Source: Prostheceraeus crozeri (Eukaryota; Platyhelminthes; Polycladida; Euryleptidae). From it: a DNA stretch of 64,000 nt. The notes below the pieces were generated by a model that was not told the origin of the DNA, searched no databases, and saw only the letters and a list, made by a program, of their open reading frames with translations. The position numbers and the translations under genes are program-made. Below, piece after piece: positions 5,185 to 50,817 of this stretch. The stretch lies in NCBI GenBank assembly GCA_907163375.1, contig CAJQUW010006799.1, positions 37,011 to 101,010 on the forward strand. The letters are read 5' to 3'. Each line of letters starts with the position of its first letter. The stretch's first letter is position 1.

Positions 5185-5971
5185 ATCAACAGAATTTCTA
5201 AGATCGACGGAGTATTTAGAACATTGCACCTTTCACTCCGACCGATGGAACAAGTACTACAACCCTGACATGTGTTGGGTTTCAGAAGAAAACGGAGAGC
5301 CACTTCCATAGGTCTGACTCGACAGGTTCCCAAAAAGCCAACATTGTCCAGTATTATTGCACGCTGGAGCACGGATACCACTCATAAAATCCCTGCCGAA
5401 ACCTAGATGGCCCCATGTGAAAAGCATAAATAAATATATATAATTATATATACATATATTCTCAACTGGAAAATATTTGAAGAACTACTCTACAGATCAT
5501 GTGTTTGTATCCCATATAGCATCCCTCTGTCCGAAGCATATGATCGCTTTTGTAAGGCAATTTTTTCGGCCGCAAAAAGAAGCATCCCGCGAGGCTTCAG
5601 GCCGCTATACACGTTTTGCTCGCCGCAGCTTGCAAAGTCCTCCTTGAAGAGTACAATCGATCCGAAGACGGAGATGTTGCCGACCACTTAATAGGGGCTC
5701 TGAACAACTCCCATGGAGCTCACTGGGAAGAAGCCACGTCAGACTTCGACCTCATACACTCAAGCCACAGAAGCTGGCACCTTATTCGCCAACTAACTAT
5801 AACAACGGGCAACACACCCCAGGCGAGCATGATTTGGTGAATTTGGATAAAGCTCCGCATATGCATAAACACTAAAGAACGATCAACAAACAATGGCGTG
5901 CTTACTACCGCAACACAGAGACCACTGATAACGAATCCACAGACATCACCACTGATGAACTATTAGTCCGG

Positions 5972-6689
5972 GAGCCAGCGTGAAGTTCTGCAGGTAACGA
6001 GGTAGTACTTTCACATAGCATAGTACACCTCTAACCTACTGCAAAACTTCGCGTCTGCCGGATCAGATCATTTGCTTTTCAGAAATAGAGAGGATAACAC
6101 AATCCTATGTATTTCCAGCGGTAAAATTGTGACATTTAAGGTGTTGACTCCATTTTTTCGAATTTTTGCTCATAAAAGTTACACAAATTGGTATTTTGTT
6201 GAACTGGTTATTAAAGAAATCATCTACAGATCATGATCTTTCAAATGAGCTATCATTCAGTGACAGAGGATGAAGTAAAGTGTGCAAACAGACACTTTTC
6301 GTTGGTGTAACTGCAAATTTTAACATGGAAATTTCAGGAAAATTGTTGATATACTTTAACGAAAAGTGTCTGTTTGTACACTTTACTTCATCCTCTGTCA
6401 CTGAATGATAACTCATTTGAAAGATCATGATCTGTAGATGATTTCTTTAATAACCAGTTCAACAAAATACCAATTTGTGTAACTTTTATGAGCAAAAATT
6501 CGAAAAAATGGAGTCAACACCTTAAATGTCACAATTTTACCGCTGGAAATACATAGGATTGTGTTATCCTCTCTATTTCTGAAAAGCAAATGATCTGATC
6601 CGGCAGACGCGAAGTTTTGCAGTAGGTTAGAGGTGTACTATGCTATGTGAAAGTACTACCTCGTTCCCTGCACAACTTCACGCTGGCTC
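5972..6689. mobile_element. Foldback (long-TIR) element, 718 bp, CCGG target duplication
   Basis: Two near-perfect inverted arms of about 335 bp (to about 6303 and from about 6358) surround a unique centre of about 54 bp. The outer ends are GAGCCAGCGTGAAGTT and its complement. CCGG is present at 5968-5971 and again at 6690-6693. Removing the element and one CCGG rebuilds the LINE frame as TDELLV-RTISKAIKEL. There is no transposase, so it is non-autonomous. The arms differ at only a few positions (for example CAGGTAACG against CAGGGAACG), suggesting a young insertion or arm homogenisation. Confidence 0.85.
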
Positions 6690-7230
6690 CCGGACAATAT
6701 CCAAAGCCATTAAAGAACTCAGATGTTGGAAAGCAGCAGGTTATGACAATATTTTCCCTGAATTTTATTTAAGAATCTCGGCCTCGCAGCAGTCACGTAG
6801 CTCTCTCGATTTTTAACACGCTGTGTCAACGAAATGAATATCCCGAAGCATGTTGGAAAGGCGAAAGTGCTTGTAATCCCCAAACCTGGAAAAGATGCCA
6901 CCTGTCCATCTAGCTACCGTCCTATCTCCCTACTGTCTGTCACCAGCAAACCTCTTGAAAGAATTATCCTCCATCGCATTAGCCCAATCGTCGAAGAGAC
7001 TCTATACGTCGCACAAGCTGGGTTCAGAAACCACATAAGCACTCAAGACCAGATTCTGGCCGTGACAACTTTCATTAACCATGGCTACAAAAAGAAACTA
7101 AAAGCTGTCGCTGTTTTCCTAGATTTAACGACGGTCTATAACACCATCTGGCAGAAACGACTTTTAGCGAAAATATCGAAAATCCTACCTAACTGGGTGG
7201 TTAGCATTATATCTACATTCGTGCTGTAGA

Positions 7231-8012: not shown

Positions 8013-9170
8013 ATGTCGTCCTCTGCACTCTCGTACGAGACATTTCTCGTTCGTCGATCCCACTTATCAAAATCTGCTGTATGGGCTTCGTTTGACAAAG
8101 GCACTTCTATAATTAAGGTTTGTCTTATCAGAAAAGAGGATGCTTTGCGCAAATCGTCAGGAGATGAATTGGTTACAGCCCATTGCTATCTTTTTGAAAT
8201 CAATGACAGCATGTCTGCAATCAAATTAATTGAAGAAGAAGCACATATTCCGAAGAGCAACGCAATCTTTCACGGGACTGGCGTTGGATTCCTTGGTCTT
8301 CAAGAAACTTTCGAAAAAGTTCTTGGAGTAAAGACTGTTTTTGTGGATGAGTTTGAATCGCAAGCCATCGGATTTCGCTTCCTATTTCAAAGCAACAAAG
8401 AATGTGACGTTTCATACCCGCCACCAAGAAATGTAAAACCAAGGCTTTTTGATGGCGGCGCTTTCATGGGCCGTTACTATCCAGTCCTTCAAAGGCAAAT
8501 GACAAGAAATAATCATGAAGGGTTATTACCTGCGATGTTCATGCAGGCTGGTTCTGGGCTAGGAACAACTGAAATTGATAGCAACGGGAAAATATCACCG
8601 CTTGGTGCTCATTTTACTGCTGGAGTGACTTTCTTGGGTCTTGCACAATGTCTTCTTGGTACTAGAAATTATGATGAAATAATAGCTCTTGCTGAGCAAG
8701 GAGATCTCTCCAACACTAATTTCCAAATCAAAGACAATCTCCCAGAGGAGATAACTGCCTATGGAGATATGGATGGAGAAATGACGTATTATAACTTTGG
8801 TCGTTTAAGTCGAGAATGGAAAGAGAACAGAACCGTAAGGAAGGAAGACTTGGCATTGTGTTTAATAACAATGTTTGCTGAGATTCTGCACATTGAGGCT
8901 ATGCATGCTTCATACAAGAGTGGACTAACCAAAGTGTTTGTCACTGGCAACTGGATTCGTTCGGAGTTAGTGAGGCGAGTTATCTGTGAACAATTTGCCT
9001 TTAACTTTCCTGATATATTAGAGTATAAATTTGTCAGATGTGGATTTTTGGCAACATTGGGAGCGATGATGATGGAAACTGATGAACTAGGAAAAACATT
9101 CAAAGATGTTTCCGCGGTCGCTCCAGGCAACGAACCATCCTCCGTCGCTTGCTTTTGCAGTGTGCTCTAG
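8013..9170 (+). CDS. Pantothenate-kinase-like protein A (probable pseudoenzyme, intronless, C-terminal CaaX-type motif)
   Basis: The 385-residue frame follows the eukaryotic (type II) pantothenate kinase fold. A nucleotide-binding strand 'SFDKGTSIIKV' (26-36) is followed by a glycine loop 'HGTGVG' (87-92), 'VDEFE' (111-115), 'AGSG' (179-182), 'GVTFLGL' (204-210), 'VRKEDLA' (275-281), 'VFVTGNWIRSE' (308-318) and 'GFLATLGA' (344-351). In active enzymes the glycine loop leads into F-E-(E/K)-D-F, whose glutamate is catalytic. Here the run is L-Q-E-T-F, placing Gln97 at that position. The arginine before the 'GGGTFLGL' motif is also absent, so a coenzyme A synthesis role is doubtful. The protein ends CSVL, a possible prenylation box. 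The ATG is supported by the paralogue, whose N-terminus begins identically. Confidence 0.8.
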   Translation: MSSSALSYETFLVRRSHLSKSAVWASFDKGTSIIKVCLIRKEDALRKSSGDELVTAHCYLFEINDSMSAIKLIEEEAHIPKSNAIFHGTGVGFLGLQETFEKVLGVKTVFVDEFESQAIGFRFLFQSNKECDVSYPPPRNVKPRLFDGGAFMGRYYPVLQRQMTRNNHEGLLPAMFMQAGSGLGTTEIDSNGKISPLGAHFTAGVTFLGLAQCLLGTRNYDEIIALAEQGDLSNTNFQIKDNLPEEITAYGDMDGEMTYYNFGRLSREWKENRTVRKEDLALCLITMFAEILHIEAMHASYKSGLTKVFVTGNWIRSELVRRVICEQFAFNFPDILEYKFVRCGFLATLGAMMMETDELGKTFKDVSAVAPGNEPSSVACFCSVL

Positions 9171-15930: not shown

Positions 15931-17031
15931 CTACCAAATTTCTTTGAAAGTTTTTCCTTGCTGATCCTTTTCCGTCATTATCGCACCCAAGGTTGCCAAA
16001 AATCCACAATTGATGAATTTGTATTCTAATATATCAGGAAAACAGTAGCTGTATTGCTCAAGGATAACTCTTCTCACAACTTCTGATCGAGTCCAGTTTC
16101 CAGTAACATACACTTTAGTTAATCCACTTTTTAATGATGCGTGAAGAGCTTCAATGTGGAAAATCTCAGCGAACATTGCTATTAAACACAATGCTAAATC
16201 TTCTTTCCGTACAGAGGCACCATCCTTCCGCTCTCGACTTAAACGACTGAAGTTGAAATATGCCAGTTCTCCGTCAAACTGTCCGTAGTCAGTATCAGTT
16301 GGTAGGTTGTCTTTGATTTGAAAATTAGTGTTGGAGAGATCTCCTTTCTCTGCAAGCGCTGCAATTTCATCGAAGTTTCTAGTACCAAGAAGACATTGTG
16401 CAAGACCCAAGAAAGTCACTCCAGCAGTAAAATGAACTCCGATAGGTGATATTTTCCCGTTGCTATCAACCTCTGTGATCGATAAACCAGAACCAGCCTG
16501 CATAAAAATCGCAGGCAGCAGTCCTTCATGATCATTTCTCCTCATTTGCTTTTCATGGCTTGGATAATAACGGGCAAAAAAGTTACCGCCATCAACACGC
16601 TGCGGTCTTACATTTCTGGGTGGAGGATAGGAGATGTCACTTTCCTTGTTGCTTTGAAGAAGGTAGCGAAATCCAATGCCTTGTGTTTCTAATTCATCCA
16701 CAAAGACAGCCTTAACTCCAAGAATCTTTTTGAAAGTTTCTTGTTGGTGAAAAAATCCACCTCCTGTTGCATGAAGGGTAGCTCCATTCTCCGGAATATG
16801 AGCTTCTTCTTTTATCAATTGGATAGCTGAGATGTTGTCATCAATATTAAAAAGATAACAATGGGCTGTAAGCAATTCATCCTCTGTGGGATTGCGTAAA
16901 GCATCTTCTTTTTTGATAAGACAGACTTTGATAATTGAATGTCCCTTGTCAAAGGAAGCCCATACAGCAGACTTTGATAAAGCAGATCGTGGAACGAGAT
17001 ATGTCTGGTATGAGATTGCAGAAGACGACAT
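15931..17031 (-). CDS. Pantothenate-kinase-like protein B (366 aa, intronless, shortened C-terminus)
   Basis: This paralogue of the protein at 8013 begins MSSSAISYQTYLVPRSALSK and stays collinear along its length. It keeps a more canonical glycine loop (HATGGG, 87-92) and AGSGLS (179-184, second serine retained), plus 'GVTFLGL' (204-210) and 'VYVTGNWTRSE'. The run after the glycine loop is F-F-H-Q-Q-E-T-F, again placing glutamine (Gln97) where active pantothenate kinases have the catalytic glutamate. The arginine before 'GVTFLGL' is absent too. It ends at KTFKEIW, 19 residues before the end of protein A, so it lacks the CSVL tail. The stop overlaps a donor-like GGTAGGTGA. The two genes converge and neither has introns, suggesting retroposition before or with local inverted duplication. 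Confidence 0.78.
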   Translation of the reverse strand: MSSSAISYQTYLVPRSALSKSAVWASFDKGHSIIKVCLIKKEDALRNPTEDELLTAHCYLFNIDDNISAIQLIKEEAHIPENGATLHATGGGFFHQQETFKKILGVKAVFVDELETQGIGFRYLLQSNKESDISYPPPRNVRPQRVDGGNFFARYYPSHEKQMRRNDHEGLLPAIFMQAGSGLSITEVDSNGKISPIGVHFTAGVTFLGLAQCLLGTRNFDEIAALAEKGDLSNTNFQIKDNLPTDTDYGQFDGELAYFNFSRLSRERKDGASVRKEDLALCLIAMFAEIFHIEALHASLKSGLTKVYVTGNWTRSEVVRRVILEQYSYCFPDILEYKFINCGFLATLGAIMTEKDQQGKTFKEIW

Positions 17032-17099: not shown

Positions 17100-18060
17100 G
17101 TTTGATCTTTGAGACTTTGACCTCAACACGAGATAACTAGATGAATGGCTCTGGATTCGCATGTGTGTCGTTATATCATAATAAAAAACTATTTCATTCA
17201 TATGCAGCGATAAGACACGCAAAATGCCATGTGATCGTATTTGATGGATGTCCTGGTTGAACTCGAATTGTGACATTTTCAAGTTTTTTAGTGTCATTGA
17301 ATTTTTACTACAACCCAGCATAACTGGATTTGACAAGCATTGCATGAATGTTAAGTCTCGTAGGTCACCCATTTTTCTCAGACCCAACTTGACGCATTTC
17401 GTTGAAAAACAACCACCCTTGAAAAGTGATGAAAGAGCTGATCCATTCTGTAATTCGAATATGACATCATAGGCAAGTGAGTAGATAAGCTAGTAAGTAC
17501 TTTATTGCTTCACTTTGCTAATTCGGTGAACATCGTGAGTTTCGTTGACAGTATATGAAAGCAAAGGGCAAGGTGCATACAATGGTCAACCAATGAAAAT
17601 GCATTGTTTTGATTAATATAATGAAAGCAGTTTACAAAGTTTCATGGAGTTGCTGCATGTAGCGAACTGTGAGATATGCACATTTATGCAGCTTTGCTTC
17701 TATACTGGAAGACACAGTGGATGAAGGTCCACATGTAATATACTATCCATGTGATTTACGTGATCCCATTATTCATAAAATAACGAAAATAGTAATCAAT
17801 ACTTCATCAGATATTCATTCACAACATGGCATGTCAATTTTTTGAAACCGTACCTCAATGAAACAGCTGTAACTCTCAATTTTTTTAGTTACAGTGGCGT
17901 AATCTGATATACAAAATATCAAATGCAACAAGAATGTAAATGAAGCAAACGGAGGTGAGTACTGTCAATTTTCTTTAAAACTAGTATTTGTTGAATACTG
18001 AAAACGAACAATTACATTGGAATATTGTATTTTCAGTGTCTTCTAAGTGTTTGTAATGCT
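17100..18060. other. Spacer, no gene recognised
   Basis: Short frames at 17082-17387 (-) and 17248-17472 (+) overlap each other and carry no family features. Confidence 0.4.
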
Positions 18061-18223
18061 TTGATGAAAAGAAAAAAACCAAGTTACTTGGTGCCTCCGT
18101 ACAAGTATATTTTTTATCTATTAATTAATTACTACTTCAGTGTAAATATTCTTTATTTTAAATAGATCAAAAAAATATACTTATACGGAGGTACCAAGTA
18201 ACTTGGTTTTTTCTTTTCATCAA
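18061..18223. mobile_element. MITE-like hairpin element, 163 bp
   Basis: Arms of about 60 bp beginning TTGATGAAAAG and containing ACCAAGTTACTTGG (itself palindromic) are inverted around an AT-rich centre. No coding capacity is present and I could not define a target duplication. Confidence 0.6.
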
Positions 18224-19541
18224 TGGATTTGAACCTCCTGAAAAATTTGATCAATTATATGTGTAATGCTCAGTAGCGTCTTCTCCGTACCTGCGAGGCC
18301 TCCGGCGTATCCTCAAAAATAATTTTCCAACAATTATAAAAATGAAAAGTGTCATCATTCACTTCATTACTTCTCGTGATAGCTGTGCACAGCTTTCCGT
18401 CTCAAAATCAGACACTTAATCTCAGAGCTAACAGTTTTGCAGCACGTGCTCGAATCACAGCTGTTTTCTTCGAACAATTAGACACACAAGCTAGTCGTGT
18501 GTCCAGACGGAGCACTGATGTTCAGACAGCGAAAGAGAGTTGTGTGTGTGTTTGTGAGGCAGTAAGCGCACGCGCCCGCGACAATATTGACTTTCCCGAT
18601 AGACATAATGCTTTGCCTTCTCCAATTTTTGCAATGAAATTCTACACGATTCTTGATCTAGGCGCGGTACCTAAATATAGTAAGGGAAGTGCAACCCAAT
18701 TGTTCCTGGATTCGCTTAATGTCAGAGAGGCACTACGTCGACAGTAGCAGATGGCTGACGTTCAGACAAGACTGTGATCAGATGATGAGCGTTCTCCAAT
18801 GAATGCAGAGTAATGCATCTGACTCGAAAACCCAGATTCGGTAGAATTCCATAATTTGTTTTTACATGATTGATGTGACGCTATGTTGAGTACTGCAGAT
18901 GAGATCATAACCACGCCTTTCGTCCGAAGGGAATATACTGAAAAGATGACAGTCGTCGAGCAAGGTAAGCCAACAACTGACATAAAATGAAAGCAGTCAC
19001 TGAGAAAGAAATAAGAAGCACTACACAAGACATTTTAATGCATCAAAATTTCAAACATGTGAGTGGCTGACCGGCCGTGAGAAACACAGGAAACTGTTGA
19101 CCTTGCCTCCTTTTTTCTCGAGATAATGTGGTCTCAGCTCCTTGAATAAGGCGGTTTAGCGACATGAGCAATCACTTCTCATGTGCACATTCACTTGGCC
19201 TTAAATAATGTTCGGGATGCTGTTATTAAAAATTCATTTAAATTCATGAAAAATAATGTTGTAACATAAAAGTGTTTGGTATAGAAATAGTATTCCAATG
19301 CCGAGTGAAGGCCTATGGTCTGGGAGCACGCGACGCCACTGGTAATGCTCGTTGCTATTTTTTTGCCTATGGCATTCCCGTCACAAAACCAACCAAAGTC
19401 CATTGCCATAGCACGTTCCTCAACATTAGACTTGTCGGCTCATGTACGAACGAACGTCAAAGAGAGATCACAAGCATTTCTACTTATAGCTTAATCATAA
19501 ACATTGCAGGGTTCCAGTTCGCCTGAGCACAGAATAAAAAG
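18224..19541. other. Spacer with an open but unidentified frame
   Basis: An open stretch at 18349-18747 (+) lacks an ATG start and has no recognisable domain. It contains a short GT run and a few CG-rich codons. It might be an exon of an unknown gene, but nothing supports that beyond openness. Confidence 0.25.
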
Positions 19542-28001: not shown

Positions 28002-28997
28002 CTAATATTTTGTGGCCCTACCCTTATTGTCAATGACATTACCAATTCGTCTAGGCATTGATTCGATGATGTCGTTGATTTTTGACTGATCTAACTTTCT
28101 CCACTCTCTTTTTAACAGTGACGTAAGTTGTGATACGCCATCTGTAGGTAGCAGTGAACGACGAACGCTACGTTTTAGAATACTCAATACATTTTCTATG
28201 GGATTCAGATCAGGAGAACGAGCTGGCCAAGATAATGTCCTAAGCCCTAATTGAGACTTGCATAAGTTGACTCTACTACTCCTGTGACACGTAGCATTAT
28301 CATCCATAAATAACCAAGTCGATGGATCACCAAGTTGATCTGTCATTTGGCCAATGTTCATTCGTAAAACATTCACATAGCGTTCAGAATTCATGGTTCC
28401 TTGCTGTATGTGAAGTTCAGAGCGGCCATTGGTCCAAATGCCAGCCCAAATCAGTAGAATCGCACCACCTTGTACCCGGGGACGATGTAAATGTCTCGGA
28501 ATTTCCTGATCAGATTTTATCCATAATCTCAATCGACCATCACTATCCTTTAGACGGACTGATGCCTCATCAGACCAGACAACCCGATCCCATTGATTTC
28601 GCCAGTGACAATGACTCATTGCCCATCTGAGACCTCTTTTTGTATGCTGATCTGATAATTCGATCTGAGAGGGCCTCTTACAGCTCTTGAAATTCGACTC
28701 AATAAGTCTTCTACGAATAGTGGACTTAGAAATAGACGAGTCTAGTGCAGCCATCTCAGTTAACGAGAGACTTGGATCAACTTTAGCAAATCTCAAAATT
28801 AGGCGGTCTCTACGTTTGGATGTTTTGCGTGGACGGCCAGAGCCCTCTTTACGACAGAATCGAAAATCATCATTATGCCATCGATGCACATTTGTGCAAG
28901 GGACATTTAGTCGCTTGCTTGTAGCTCGCAAAGAAAACCCTAGTTCTAGCAAGGCTGACACTTTGCCTTTTGTGAATGCGATCTCATTATTGTTCAT
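28002..28997 (-). CDS. Tc1-like transposase, intact DD34E
   Basis: This 331-residue protein has the usual Tc1 length. An N-terminal helix-turn-helix (residues about 10-45) is followed by the 'GSGRPRK' linker (52-58) and a second helix-turn-helix ('SLTEMAAL...SKSTIRRRL', about 77-100). The RNase H-like catalytic core follows, with Asp143 in 'WSDEAS', Asp233 in 'MDDNATCH' and Glu268 in 'SPDLNPIEN', a spacing of 34. The ATG at 28997 precedes the HTH directly. No stop or frameshift interrupts it, so the protein could be functional even though one transposon end is shortened. It would bind the inverted ends and cut and paste at TA. Confidence 0.92.
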   Translation of the reverse strand: MNNNEIAFTKGKVSALLELGFSLRATSKRLNVPCTNVHRWHNDDFRFCRKEGSGRPRKTSKRRDRLILRFAKVDPSLSLTEMAALDSSISKSTIRRRLIESNFKSCKRPSQIELSDQHTKRGLRWAMSHCHWRNQWDRVVWSDEASVRLKDSDGRLRLWIKSDQEIPRHLHRPRVQGGAILLIWAGIWTNGRSELHIQQGTMNSERYVNVLRMNIGQMTDQLGDPSTWLFMDDNATCHRSSRVNLCKSQLGLRTLSWPARSPDLNPIENVLSILKRSVRRSLLPTDGVSQLTSLLKREWRKLDQSKINDIIESMPRRIGNVIDNKGRATKY

Positions 28998-29339
28998 TTG
29001 TGCTTTGTATTGTTTTCAACCGGTAAGAGATAGATTTCTAGCTGAAAGCAATCAGGAGTGCTGCCAACACCACCGCAACGAAGTCAGGAAGCTATGGAAC
29101 ATGAAGTCCATTTAATCACATGTAGCAGTTACATTATTGTTGATGAATAATGGTACTATACTGGCTCTGATTGACCGATTTTCTTTATTTTTGTTTTGCT
29201 TGATAGCTTTTGGCTTGTAGAACAACATATTACATAACAAAGGAAGCAAATGTAATTTTATAAGAGTGAGGTATGATTTTGTGTAACATTGCTAAATGAA
29301 GATCAAATTATCTAATACTTTTTATCTATAACAGGAAAA

Positions 29340-46915: not shown

Positions 46916-47170
46916 GTGGAAGAAAGGGCTGTCTTAAAATTTTAAGATAGTACTGAAAAGAAATGGATGGACACCATCTATGTGTAATCTTAGTTCAGGT
47001 CTCAGACTGTGACAAACTACAAGTTGCTTACTGCGGTAGACCTACATACTTTAAGGGGAACCATTTCTGGCAGCATTTCATTCTGTGAGCTTCCCGCATC
47101 ATTAGTGCTATGCATAGAATTCTAGCATATACCAGAGCATCCTAGCAATCCTTGTACTAGTATATGTACA

Positions 47171-47262
47171 GTAACCTACTGTCTACGAGGAGTTACACGG
47201 TGAGAATCTCCGAGCCGAAGGCGAGGAGATTTCTGTGTAACTCCGAGTAGACAACTAGGTTA
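47171..47262. repeat. Hairpin P1 at the left edge of the decayed Crypton-like unit
   Basis: An imperfect 92-bp palindrome has arms GTAACCTACTGTCTACGAGG... and ...GTAGACAACTAGGTTAC. Its centre forms CTC-CGAG-CC-GAA-GG-CGAG-GAG. The paired arms carry G.A/A.G mismatches inside CGAG/CGAG and close on a GAA loop. The inner half aligns with hairpin P2 (48945-49036). Confidence 0.7.
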
Positions 47263-47619
47263 CTGATATGTAACCCACGAGAAGATATGAAATATGCCTA
47301 TGCCCAATCCGAGATCCAATACCATAGATCTATGTTGCGCTCTATAGATCCATTTTTATAGCAAACTTAGATATTTCAATGAAACACAAACTTAACAATA
47401 TCTTAAATATCATAGTGATTTCAGCGGAGACATACTTGAATTTGAATTGAGCGGAGAAATACAAATGGAAGTATATGATCATGGAAATCTAAGAATTCCA
47501 CAAGATAGGTCAAATAGTCTATTCTTTTATGAAATAGGAGAGGAAGAGCACGGTCATCAACTATGCAGTAGTGGACTTTAATGATGAGCTGTTTAACTTT
47601 GACGTTGATGAAAAGCAGT

Positions 47620-47960
47620 AGAAAAAGGCTACGATCAAATAAGAAAGGAATTGAAAGAATTCCAGACTCAATACTAAGACGATAGAAAAGTCGCGCTTTA
47701 CTTCAACTGATTCAAGCGAAGGCATGAATAATGGAAAGTGGCTCGTGACTACCAGAGTAAGGTATCAAGAGCACTGAATAAGGATTGCCTATCAAAAGAT
47801 GGAGATGAACTATCTGTTTGACTGCTTCTTCATAGAGCTCAAGAAACAAAATGGCGATCTGTATCCACTTCCTACATGGAAATCTTTTATGTTTTTTAAC
47901 AATATTATCTCAACTAAACGAAAGGACGATGATCGAAGGGTTCCATCTTAAATTGACGAC
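47620..47960 (+). pseudogene. Decayed Crypton/DUF3504-type recombinase N-terminus
   Basis: In one frame the plus strand shows RKVALYFN, stop, FKRRHE, stop, WKVARDYQ.... In the next it shows 'MNYLFDCFFIELKKQNGDLY' then 'PLPTWKSFMFFNNIIS'. These follow 'KEKWAIKLFRSWHSGWKVKL' and 'LNHCLKFFVADVRKVKGGKY'-'PAKSLKILFAMIQHYLN' of the intact protein at 49261 in the same order. The rest of the catalytic domain is not recognisable. It is a dead, 3'-lost relative of the neighbouring element. Confidence 0.55.
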
Positions 47961-48944
47961 CACCTCAACAGCACAAAGTAAGTCTTCATCACATTTATTC
48001 TTGCCATTTCAATATCTAAATTCTAAACTGCTGGATGGATTAAGGTGAACACGAATTGCATTTGCTCTAATTTATTTACCTACTCAGGCTAGAATTTTTT
48101 AACCTGCAAATAGTTCATTTTTGTGACATTTAGAAATTTATATCTATGCCTACATAACAAAACACATGCAAAGTCGCATGATAGCTGGAATGTATTTATG
48201 ATTCAATGAAATCATTGGCAAACGAGCAATAGTGCTTATATGAGTATCAAGTAGCGAAAATGAAATCAGTCATGTAAATATATAAAGTATGCATGTATAT
48301 TTTGTATATGCTGCCCACACAGAGAAAATTGCCTCTTTGTATTTATGTTTCTATAATAGTCCATAAGCATTTTTCATTCAACACCAAAAGCTTGAGCTAT
48401 TCAGTATATGGTGCAAGTCATTTAAGCAATATAAACTGGCAACGGAACGTATTCCATCTTTTATTTATATGCTTATTATTTCATTCCAAAATACAAATGG
48501 TAGGATCAATGGCATCAGATTATGATAGCAAATACTGTAATATATTTCTTGACTTTACTTCAATGACTGCAAGATACCATAAATTTCTTAACAATTCTAA
48601 TTGTTCTAATTCTTATAATTCTGTTTTAATTCCAGCTCCCCTTCGAATGATTGATCAATTGTGGTTGCACCACACAGTTGCCATCAAATGCAAATTTCAA
48701 TGCCGTGGACATACTTTACGTGGACAACAAGCAACAATTTTTCTAAGCAATGAGATCCAAGAGACGTGATACAGATGACATAGTACTAAAAATATACGTT
48801 CTGATATTCTGATACTATGCCTTCTTTCCAATGTTATAAAACATTACTACTTTGACATATCTATTGTCTTTTGGCCGGAGAAATATATAGTGAGAATTTT
48901 AAGTAGATATCAGGGTAATTAATCGTCAGAGTGGGTTACATATA

Positions 48945-49036
48945 TGATAAAGCACTGATTTGAGGAGGTAAACAGTGAGAATCTACGAGTGCGAAGCACG
49001 AGTAGATATCACTGTTTACCTTCCAAAATCAGTGCT
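48945..49036. repeat. Hairpin P2 between the two Crypton-like units
   Basis: A 92-bp palindrome (left arm ATGATAAAGCACTGATTTG..., right arm ...AATCAGTGCTTTGTCAT, about 88% paired) centres on CTA-CGAG-TGC-GAA-GCA-CGAG-TAG. It contains GCGAAGC, a sequence known to form an exceptionally stable DNA mini-hairpin. Its inner half matches P1, with compensated changes in the stem. Confidence 0.75.
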
Positions 49037-49260
49037 TTGTCATGATTTCTACTACGATGTATCATGGAAATCTAAAAAGTTAGATGTCCATACTACTACT
49101 TAGATTTCCATGGAAGCATACATAATAAAATCTATGTGCATCAAATTTTGAATATCATAAAATCTATGCATACCAGGAGATCATCTGGTCAATCAAATTT
49201 TGAATGGTAACTTGGTATGATTAGCAAAATCATTCATTCTAAAGCAAAGGATATTGAAGA

Positions 49261-50529
49261 ATGGGTGAAAGCAGTAGCAGCTCCTCTCGATTCGCAAGTA
49301 CATCTGCAAAAGAAATCGAAGATCATATGAAAGACGTAATACCATCAAATACAGAAGCAAAGGAGAAGTGGGCAATCAAACTCTTCCGATCATGGCATTC
49401 AGGGTGGAAAGTTAAGTTAAACGACGGAACGTTGAAAGTATTCAATGATTTAGATGATATGAGCAAATCAGATTTGAACCACTGTCTCAAGTTTTTTGTG
49501 GCGGATGTAAGAAAAGTCAAAGGAGGGAAATATCCAGCAAAGTCCCTGAAGATTCTATTTGCGATGATTCAACACTATCTAAATTACAAACTCAAAAAGG
49601 CGTGGTCATTGTTTCTAGACAGCGAGTTTTTAGAGGCCAGGCAGGTACTTGATGCCGAAATGAAAATGAGCGCCATCGAAGGAAACGTCACAAGAACGAA
49701 GCGAGCAGAAGCGATTACTAAAGACGACGAGAACGATTTGTGGAAAAATGGCTATTTAGGAGAAGACAATGCATGGAAATTGCAAAACACTTTTATTTTC
49801 ATGTCTGGATTAATCTGTGGACTGAGAGCATCGACCGAACATTACGAGATGAAGTACGGTGTCAACTTTTACATAGGAGAAAATCTTATTTACAAAGAAA
49901 CTGTCTCCAAAAGTAAGAACTTCGGGCTGAAACAAGCGCGTGTTGAGCCTAAGCTATTGACGATTACGCCAAATGAATCCCAACCAGAAAGATGCTTGGT
50001 AAGGTTATACCGAAAGTATATTGAACATAGACCGACGCACAAAGTTGGAGATCCACTTCATCTGGCTTGCATTCTGCATCCGAAGAGTAACGTATGGTAT
50101 AAGCAGCAAAGGCTGGGAATTCACTCCATCGAGCAAGTTGTTAAAAGAGTGATGTGTGGTGGATTGGGGAAAGAAGGCTTCTATTCCAATACCAGCCTGA
50201 GAAGGACAGCCAAAACACGGATGGTGGAGGCTAATATTCCTAGGGAACTTTACAAAAAATGGATTGGACATTTGTCAGACGCAGACGAAACATATATCAA
50301 AGAGGTACTCTTTCGTGAAAGAATTCAAGATTCACTATATGGATGCGTGAAGGAGCCGGCGCGAGAGGAAACCGCGAAAAAAGATGCTGACAAGAAGGTC
50401 GTAATACAAGTAATGACAGGTGATAAGACTGTTACAATCAGAGAGACAGTATCTGTTTTCTCTTTTACTTACCTACTTCATTTACCTATTCGATTTACCT
50501 CCTTATTCCATGTTTCAGTGGTTCCATGA
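49261..50529 (+). CDS. Crypton/DUF3504-type tyrosine recombinase
   Basis: This intact 422-residue frame starts at an ATG followed by a serine-rich leader. An N-terminal helical DNA-binding region (about 35-110) has 'WHSGWKVKLNDGTLKVF' and 'GGKYPAKSLKILFAMIQHYL'. The catalytic domain has 'GLRASTEH' (187-194, Arg189), 'QPERCLVRLYRKYIEHRP' (241-258), 'WYKQQRLG' (279-286), 'NTSLRRTAKTRM' (310-321, Arg314), 'WIGH' (334-337, His337) and a candidate nucleophile Tyr345. This order is that of Crypton and DUF3504 proteins. The usual histidine of the HxxR box (NHSLR) is threonine (Thr311). After about residue 395 the sequence turns hydrophobic, so the true end may be earlier or spliced. Hairpins lie on either side. 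Confidence 0.85.
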   Translation: MGESSSSSSRFASTSAKEIEDHMKDVIPSNTEAKEKWAIKLFRSWHSGWKVKLNDGTLKVFNDLDDMSKSDLNHCLKFFVADVRKVKGGKYPAKSLKILFAMIQHYLNYKLKKAWSLFLDSEFLEARQVLDAEMKMSAIEGNVTRTKRAEAITKDDENDLWKNGYLGEDNAWKLQNTFIFMSGLICGLRASTEHYEMKYGVNFYIGENLIYKETVSKSKNFGLKQARVEPKLLTITPNESQPERCLVRLYRKYIEHRPTHKVGDPLHLACILHPKSNVWYKQQRLGIHSIEQVVKRVMCGGLGKEGFYSNTSLRRTAKTRMVEANIPRELYKKWIGHLSDADETYIKEVLFRERIQDSLYGCVKEPAREETAKKDADKKVVIQVMTGDKTVTIRETVSVFSFTYLLHLPIRFTSLFHVSVVP

Positions 50530-50565
50530 TATAAAATGTTTGTTGAAACACTATGGTAGTTTTTA

Positions 50566-50604
50566 AAGTAAACAGTAAGAATCTATTCATAAAATAGCAT
50601 TTAC
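50566..50604. repeat. Degenerate hairpin P3 right of the recombinase gene
   Basis: AGTAAACAGTAAGAATCTAT followed by TCATAAAATAGCATTTAC repeats the left arm of P2 (GTAAACAGTGAGAATCTA) and keeps a shortened complementary right arm. The GAA-loop centre is lost. Confidence 0.5.
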
Positions 50605-50817
50605 CGACTGAGCAGAGTAGTAGAAATGAAAGTAATCTTGGTATATACTCGTACATAGAAATCCTAACTTATTCGCCTTAGTGACGAGCTATTCCTACTT
50701 TTGAGAATGCAAGTGAGAAAAGCGCTGACGCTGATGTGATGACTCGTAGGTTGCCACTGCGGCATTGCCTGGCTACCATCGGTTTCCTGCTTCGTGTGAA
50801 ACGGGTAAGAGTGATAT

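What the first reader, a model, noticed from the sequence alone, without database searches (positions are those of the whole stretch)
47171..50604. Covarying GAA-loop hairpins border two Crypton-type tyrosine-recombinase units
Hairpins P1 (47171-47262), P2 (48945-49036) and degenerate P3 (50566-50604) sit at the left edge, junction and right edge of a decayed and an intact recombinase unit. P1 and P2 share a core but differ by compensated changes: GTTACAC/GTGTAAC versus GTAAACA/TGTTTAC, and the pair C47210:G47226 versus A48985:T49003. Both keep the same non-Watson-Crick feature, CGAG opposite CGAG (tandem G.A pairs), and close on a GAA triloop. P2 contains GCGAAGC, a known ultra-stable DNA mini-hairpin. 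Cryptons are not known to me to have such borders. Conserved folding with changing sequence suggests the folded strand matters, perhaps as a recombination site resembling folded integron attC sites, which are also used by tyrosine recombinases. The structure is seen; the function is inference.
Basis: partly seen in the sequence, partly recalled or inferred. Interest (0 to 1): 0.8.

Follow-up and report, generated by a model that had tools for sequence, protein, structure and literature searches.

The report
Twin hairpins beside Crypton-like recombinase genes
Two related, unusually strong hairpin-forming sequences sit at the edges of two copies (one decayed, one open) of a recombinase gene from a jumping element in a eukaryotic genome; the hairpins are real and related, but that the recombinase uses them is unproven.

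Summary
P1 and P2 are real: the two most stable folds of the 64 kb, homologous over a core of about 60 nt (0 of 1000 shuffles). Of 19 homologous pairs, 14 are identical, 2 changed on one side, 3 on both, 0 broken; 5 further positions pair in only one copy. P3 is a sequence relic that does not fold. A fourth, tip-less relic R lies before P2. ORF 49261-50529 is DUF3504+QRICH1, CryptonA-type; unit 1 keeps a decayed match to roughly its first 110 residues.

New: P1 is bounded by an exact 7-bp direct repeat; a 13-bp inverted repeat joins the right edge of P1 to the left edge of P2, and an 11-bp one marks unit 2.

Against the integron-like reading: the core is conserved and the base varies, the reverse of attC (recalled); the two strands fold about equally as DNA; no other copy was reachable. 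I favour end repeats of Crypton units, bound mainly as duplex; a separate palindromic insertion is nearly as likely. Genome copies and empty sites would decide.

The parts
47162..47168 (.). left copy of the exact 7-bp direct repeat ATATGTA flanking P1
   Evidence: 7 or more at slack 0 in 4 of 20000 random placements
47169..47265 (+). P1, palindromic repeat, hairpin with GAA triloop and two GA/GA loops
47266..47278 (.). left inverted arm ATATGTAACCCAC of unit 1; its first 7 bases are the right copy of the direct repeat
47691..47939 (+). decayed, frameshifted remnant matching the N-terminal part of the recombinase ORF (limits approximate)
48850..48943 (+). R, decayed tip-less copy of the palindrome (left limit approximate)
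   Evidence: (D5); does not fold, z 0.99
48931..48943 (.). right inverted arm GTGGGTTACATAT of unit 1, ending at the P2 edge
   Evidence: 2 of 20000 random placements
48944..49043 (+). P2, palindromic repeat, hairpin with tip GCGAAGC and one GA/GA loop
49045..49055 (.). left inverted arm ATTTCTACTAC of unit 2
   Evidence: 7 of 20000 random placements
49261..50529 (+). CryptonA-type tyrosine-recombinase ORF, 422 codons (DUF3504, QRICH1)
50566..50604 (+). P3, relic related to the 5' arm of P2, not a significant hairpin
50617..50627 (.). right inverted arm GTAGTAGAAAT of unit 2

Best explanation
P1 and P2 are two diverged copies of one palindromic repeat of about 100 bp that belongs to the left (5') end of two CryptonA-type units lying head to tail; R and P3 are decayed copies near the right ends. 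The repeat, with the short inverted and direct repeats at its edge, is the attachment region of the unit. Likely working: the recombinase binds unit-specific inverted arms in double-stranded DNA, crosses over in a short A+T-rich core (ATATG-like), and excises or inserts the unit as a circle; a later unit integrated at the edge of an earlier one, which gives the array. The very stable tip may help cruciform extrusion, protein binding or transcript folding. SHOWN: homology of P1 and P2, the folds, the compensated core, the repeats at the edges, the Crypton-type ORF, the partial remnant. INFERRED: that the repeats are element ends, that the recombinase uses them, and any role of folding.
For: P1-P2 homology, 0 of 1000 shuffles. 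Compensated pairs, chance about 6e-4 if the arms changed independently. 13-bp inverted repeat at the P1 right edge and P2 left edge (2 of 20000) and 11-bp one after P2 and beyond P3 (7 of 20000). Relics near both right ends in the same orientation: R like P1 (22 of 1000; outer parts 74 and 31 of 2000), P3 like P2 (5 of 1000). CryptonA-type ORF; N-terminal remnant in unit 1. Other eukaryotic tyrosine-recombinase elements have such ends: 19 of 20 curated Starships with direct repeats of 2-12 bp, 18 of 20 with terminal inverted repeats (PMC12153272, passages).
Against: One locus; no genome held; no relative found. No terminal repeats were found in animal Cryptons (PMC3212892, passages). P2 has no exact flanking direct repeat. 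The outer parts of P3 are not like those of P2 (729 and 1529 of 2000); R is as close to P2 (30 of 1000) as to P1 over the whole copy. A 6-bp direct repeat around P1..R is met or passed by 88 of 5000 random placements, and around P2..unit 2 only 3 bp (ATG) repeat. Inverted 11-mers are common in the 5-kb region (36 rows, overlapping ones counted). Where the HxxR histidine is expected the ORF reads T (by eye, motif recalled), so activity is doubtful.
Confidence: 0.36

Rival explanations
1. P1 and P2 are short palindromic insertions (MITE or foldback type), moved by a transposase encoded elsewhere, that landed beside recombinase units; they have no part in Crypton movement.
For: P1 is flanked by an exact 7-bp direct repeat (4 of 20000 random placements reach 7 or more); of 11 palindromes examined in the window it is the only one. 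The window holds other palindromes and Tc1-like transposases.
Against: P2 has no direct repeat. The termini, which a transposase would need, are the least similar part (213 of 500). Both copies lie at unit edges and a relic of the same repeat lies near each right end. The covariance model finds no further copy in the window.
Confidence: 0.28
2. The palindromes arose and stay perfect by fold-back DNA synthesis and templated repair: a small hairpin core copied its flank, so each has its own arms, and one arm keeps correcting the other. No function is needed.
For: Outer arms differ wholly between copies yet are complementary within each. Stem-loop extension that gives inverted repeats is described for DNA polymerase theta (PMC11292364, abstract). 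Relics R and P3 have lost or shortened the tip, as unstable palindromes do (inference).
Against: The GA/GA loop below the tip is uncorrected in both copies, which correction would be expected to remove. The edge repeats are not explained.
Confidence: 0.2
3. The hairpins act as RNA: precursors of small RNAs or folded parts of the recombinase transcript, on the strand of the ORF.
For: As RNA the + strand folds better than the - strand in both (-61.9 against -55.3, -61.1 against -53.8). P2 lies about 220 bases upstream of the ORF on the same strand. Weak matches to microRNA models, best 36.8 bits (E 5e-05 in 4 kb; 2.5e-06 in 201 bases).
Against: No Rfam match at gathering score in the window; that best match is far below its cut-off of 135 bits. 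A 3-nt loop and a stem of more than 40 pairs are unusual for animal microRNA precursors (recalled).
Confidence: 0.1
4. One reading: the folded single strand is the recombination site, as with integron attC.
For: Stable folds with a conserved non-Watson-Crick loop and ultra-stable tip beside a tyrosine-recombinase gene.
Against: Conserved core and variable base, the reverse of what I recall for attC; nearly equal DNA folding of the two strands; no copies, circles or empty sites; the recombinase may lack a catalytic residue.
Confidence: 0.06

Closest known systems
CryptonA transposons (animal tyrosine-recombinase DNA transposons, DUF3504)
   Same: DUF3504 + QRICH1-type recombinase ORF, no second long ORF seen between P2 and P3, unit of about 1.7 kb
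   Different: No terminal repeats were found in animal Cryptons (PMC3212892, passages); here palindromes, inverted repeats and a 7-bp direct repeat lie at the unit edges
Fungal Starships
   Same: Recombinase gene towards one end; short direct repeats and inverted repeats at the ends (PMC12153272, passages)
   Different: Starships are about 20-700 kb with dozens of genes (same passages); these units are about 1.7 kb; hairpins are not mentioned in the passages I saw
Integron attC sites
   Same: Imperfect palindromes with unpaired bases, used by a tyrosine recombinase (PMC8946536, passages)
   Different: Here the core is conserved and the base varies; both strands fold about equally as DNA; use by the recombinase not shown
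Palindromic MITEs and foldback elements
   Same: Near-perfect palindrome of about 100 bp; P1 has a 7-bp flanking direct repeat
   Different: Termini not similar between copies; P2 without direct repeat; both at edges of recombinase units
Terminator-like hairpin repeat of one Nealsonbacteria genome (L085, L088, L091)
   Same: Same tip design, GA/GA loop and GAA triloop, inside GAATCT...AGATTC
   Different: Bacterial and short; no link to a recombinase was looked for; most likely convergence on a stable tip

Membership tests
CryptonA | DUF3504-type recombinase domain | tested here: met
   Pfam PF12012 E 1.3e-18 and PF25561 E 6.7e-10
CryptonA | complete R-H-R-Y catalytic residues | tested here: inconclusive
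   R, R and Y can be placed by eye and T stands where the first H is expected (motif partly recalled); the C-terminal 89 aa matched no recombinase among solved structures; single-sequence fold unusable, pLDDT 32.7
CryptonA | no terminal repeats, as reported for animal members | tested here: inconclusive
   13-bp and 11-bp inverted repeats at the unit edges, but that these are the true ends is inferred
CryptonA | several mobile copies and empty sites | not testable with these tools
   no genome held
Crypton, fungal and stramenopile type | 4-6 bp terminal direct repeats | tested here: inconclusive
   TATATG around P1..R at slack 3, 88 of 5000 random placements as long; 3 bp (ATG) around P2..unit 2
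Integron attC | conserved GTT/AAC boxes at the base of the hairpin (recalled) | tested here: not met
   base of P2 is ATGATAAAG/CTTTGTCAT; P1 does carry CAGTAAC/GTTACTG
Integron attC | strand-selective folding | tested here: inconclusive
   DNA energies of the two strands differ by about 2 kcal/mol in each
MITE | target-site duplication at each copy | tested here: not met
   P1 yes (7 bp), P2 no
MITE | similar termini between copies | tested here: not met
   outer 5' arms: 213 of 500 shuffles as similar
MITE | many dispersed copies in the genome | not testable with these tools
   no genome held; no third copy in the 64 kb by covariance model
microRNA gene | match to a curated family at its gathering score | tested here: not met
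   0 matches in the window

The most novel reading that the evidence does not exclude
Some animal Cryptons carry palindromic end repeats whose folded strand is the recombination substrate: a eukaryotic, self-mobilising analogue of integron attC recombination, with unit-specific stems and a shared ultra-stable tip.
Probability: 0.06. Interest if true: 0.88.

Novelty: new variant of a known kind. Interest (0 to 1): 0.42.

Why it matters
In the one survey I looked into (PMC3212892, passages) animal Cryptons showed no terminal repeats, so how they excise and insert is open. If palindromes with short inverted and direct repeats mark their ends, the borders, target site and circle junction become directly testable. 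A folded-strand substrate would bring integron-type chemistry to eukaryotes.

Tried and rejected
Own genome: none held. Relatives of the recombinase: viral contigs, 15 stretches matched a peptide pattern and 0 were confirmed; phages 0; plasmids 0; NCBIfam 0; PHROGs best E 0.068, an integrase family at 0.084. Solved structures: only QRICH1, E 0.006; the C-terminal fragment gave two chance matches, E 0.41 and 0.57.

Hairpin patterns: a 14-base pattern gave 83 viral stretches; all 83 were folded, the best at -42.1 against -52.8 and -54.3 for P1 and P2, and the 8 that I looked at are G+C-rich and unlike them by eye, so taken as chance. A 21-base pattern gave 0 viral stretches and 8 prokaryote ones; 3 of the 8 are one repeat of a Nealsonbacteria genome, taken as convergence. 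An 18-base pattern of the 5' arm gave 0 viral. Covariance model of P1 and P2: apart from the two themselves (both strands), the only window match has E 2.4.

Rfam: 0 at gathering score; weak microRNA matches not believed. AlphaFold without alignment: pLDDT 32.7, not used. DNA alignment of unit 1 with unit 2: no better than shuffles. A possible third Crypton remnant at about 17.8-18.0 kb (tile score 64) was not believed, since tiles over a zinc-finger ORF and near a reverse-transcriptase ORF reach 67 and 68. My idea that P2 and P3 share outer arms was dropped.
Full report
WHAT THE WINDOW IS. No whole genome is held for it. Longer ORFs match eukaryotic or transposon families: Fumble (pantothenate kinase), Tc1-like transposases, a reverse transcriptase, C2H2 zinc fingers. 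That the host is a eukaryote, probably an animal, is inferred; it was not identified.

THE HAIRPINS. P1 (inverted repeat 47169-47265) and P2 (48944-49043) fold with z -11.5 and -14.2 as RNA (0 of 200 shuffles each) and -8.5 and -13.2 as DNA (0 of 200 each). In a scan of 110-nt stretches every 20 bases they are first and second (-65.1, -63.7; third -45.3; mean -18.3). Their cores are homologous: local score 60 against 19.2 +/- 3.7, 0 of 1000 shuffles; 24 of 28 bases of the 5' arm are identical. Of 19 homologous pairs, 14 are unchanged, 2 changed on one side, 3 on both, 0 broken; 5 further positions of that arm (47201-47205) pair in only one of the two copies. If the arms changed independently, at least 3 of the 4 changes in the 3' arm would hit pairs changed in the 5' arm with probability 0.016, and also restore the pair with about 6e-4. 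This compares two sequences only, and copying of one arm from the other would give the same picture.

WHAT DIFFERS. The outer arms are complementary within each palindrome but not similar between them (213 of 500 shuffles; 378 and 900 of 2000 random stretches for the left and right outer parts). The conserved part is the core and tip, with CGAG/CGAG and GAA; the base is particular to each copy. GCGAAGC, the tip of P2, is an exceptionally stable DNA mini-hairpin (PMC4686876, passages). The same tip design turned up in 3 of 8 prokaryote stretches found by pattern, all one repeat of one Nealsonbacteria genome, so stability alone can bring it about. As DNA the strands fold about equally; as RNA the + strand is better by about 7 kcal/mol in both.

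RELICS. P3 does not fold, but its 5' arm is related to P2 (5 of 1000). A further relic, R (about 48850-48943), has lost the tip and does not fold (z 0.99). R resembles P1 (22 of 1000) and P2 (30 of 1000); its outer parts resemble those of P1 (74 and 31 of 2000 random stretches) but not P2 (1235 and 1949). The outer parts of P3 resemble neither P2 (729 and 1529) nor P1 (1109 and 605). P3 with P1 (367 of 1000) and R with P3 (279 of 1000) are not similar as wholes.

THE UNITS. Unit 2 has an ORF of 422 codons with DUF3504 and QRICH1, the domains of animal Cryptons and of genes derived from them (PMC3212892, abstract and passages). Its first catalytic histidine seems to be a threonine (by eye, motif partly recalled). 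Unit 1 holds a frameshifted remnant matching the N-terminal part: score 82; 200 shuffles 38.3 +/- 4.8, highest 55; best of 147 overlapping tiles, next 68. In the rest of unit 1 I found nothing recognisable; one 163-codon ORF there has no Pfam match. The units do not align as DNA.

THE EDGES. P1 is flanked exactly by ATATGTA (47162-47168, 47266-47272); 4 of 20000 random placements reach 7 or more. Of 11 palindromes examined in the window, P1 alone has such a repeat. The 13 bases after P1 (ATATGTAACCCAC) are the reverse complement of the 13 before P2; 2 of 20000 random placements do as well. After P2, ATTTCTACTAC is mirrored at 50617-50627, beyond P3; 7 of 20000. These repeats were found by looking, inverted 11-mers are common here (36 rows), and the counts are guides rather than strict tests.

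READING. The edges look like ends of tyrosine-recombinase elements: short direct repeat, inverted arms, recombinase gene. Starships have such ends (PMC12153272, passages); for animal Cryptons none were found by Kojima and Jurka (PMC3212892, passages). I favour end repeats of two Crypton-type units, the second placed at the edge of the first, with duplex arms as binding sites (0.36). A separate palindromic insertion is close behind (0.28): it explains the 7-bp repeat of P1 but not P2 or the variable termini. Palindromes made and kept by templated repair follow (0.20), then an RNA role (0.10) and a folded-strand site as in integrons (0.06).

PRIOR WORK. Searches for Crypton with tyrosine recombinase and hairpin (10 papers), with palindrom (23 papers, 15 listed) and with terminal direct repeats (2 papers) gave titles and starts of abstracts in which I saw no report of hairpin borders for Cryptons; most of these papers were not opened. 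PMC3212892 has 0 occurrences of hairpin in its main text. Most subscription papers are not held.

VERDICT. A real, well-placed and unusual structure at one locus, function open. A new variant of a known kind if the borders hold up.

Noticed in passing
L085 497-521, L088, L091: Three contigs of one Nealsonbacteria genome carry the same terminator-like hairpin GAATCTGCGAGCGAAGCGAGCAGATTC, with the GA/GA loop and GAA triloop of P1/P2.
   Followed up: partly
window 49063-49112 and 47480-47493: A second small palindrome (CATGGAAATCTAA...TTAGATTTCCATG) lies between P2 and the ORF; the same motif occurs in unit 1.
   Followed up: no
window 8013-9106 and 15941-17031: Inverted pair of 78% identity over 1094 bp, each with a long ORF; the first matches Fumble (pantothenate kinase), the second was not scanned.
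   Followed up: no
window 5961-6699: Large palindrome: 743-column alignment to its own reverse complement at 95% identity.
   Followed up: no
window 18055-18229: Palindrome, about 83% self-complementary, with no flanking direct repeat beyond 4 bp.
   Followed up: partly
window 28005-29015 (-): Open Tc1-like transposase frame of 337 codons (DDE_3, HTH_Tnp_Tc3_2).
   Followed up: no
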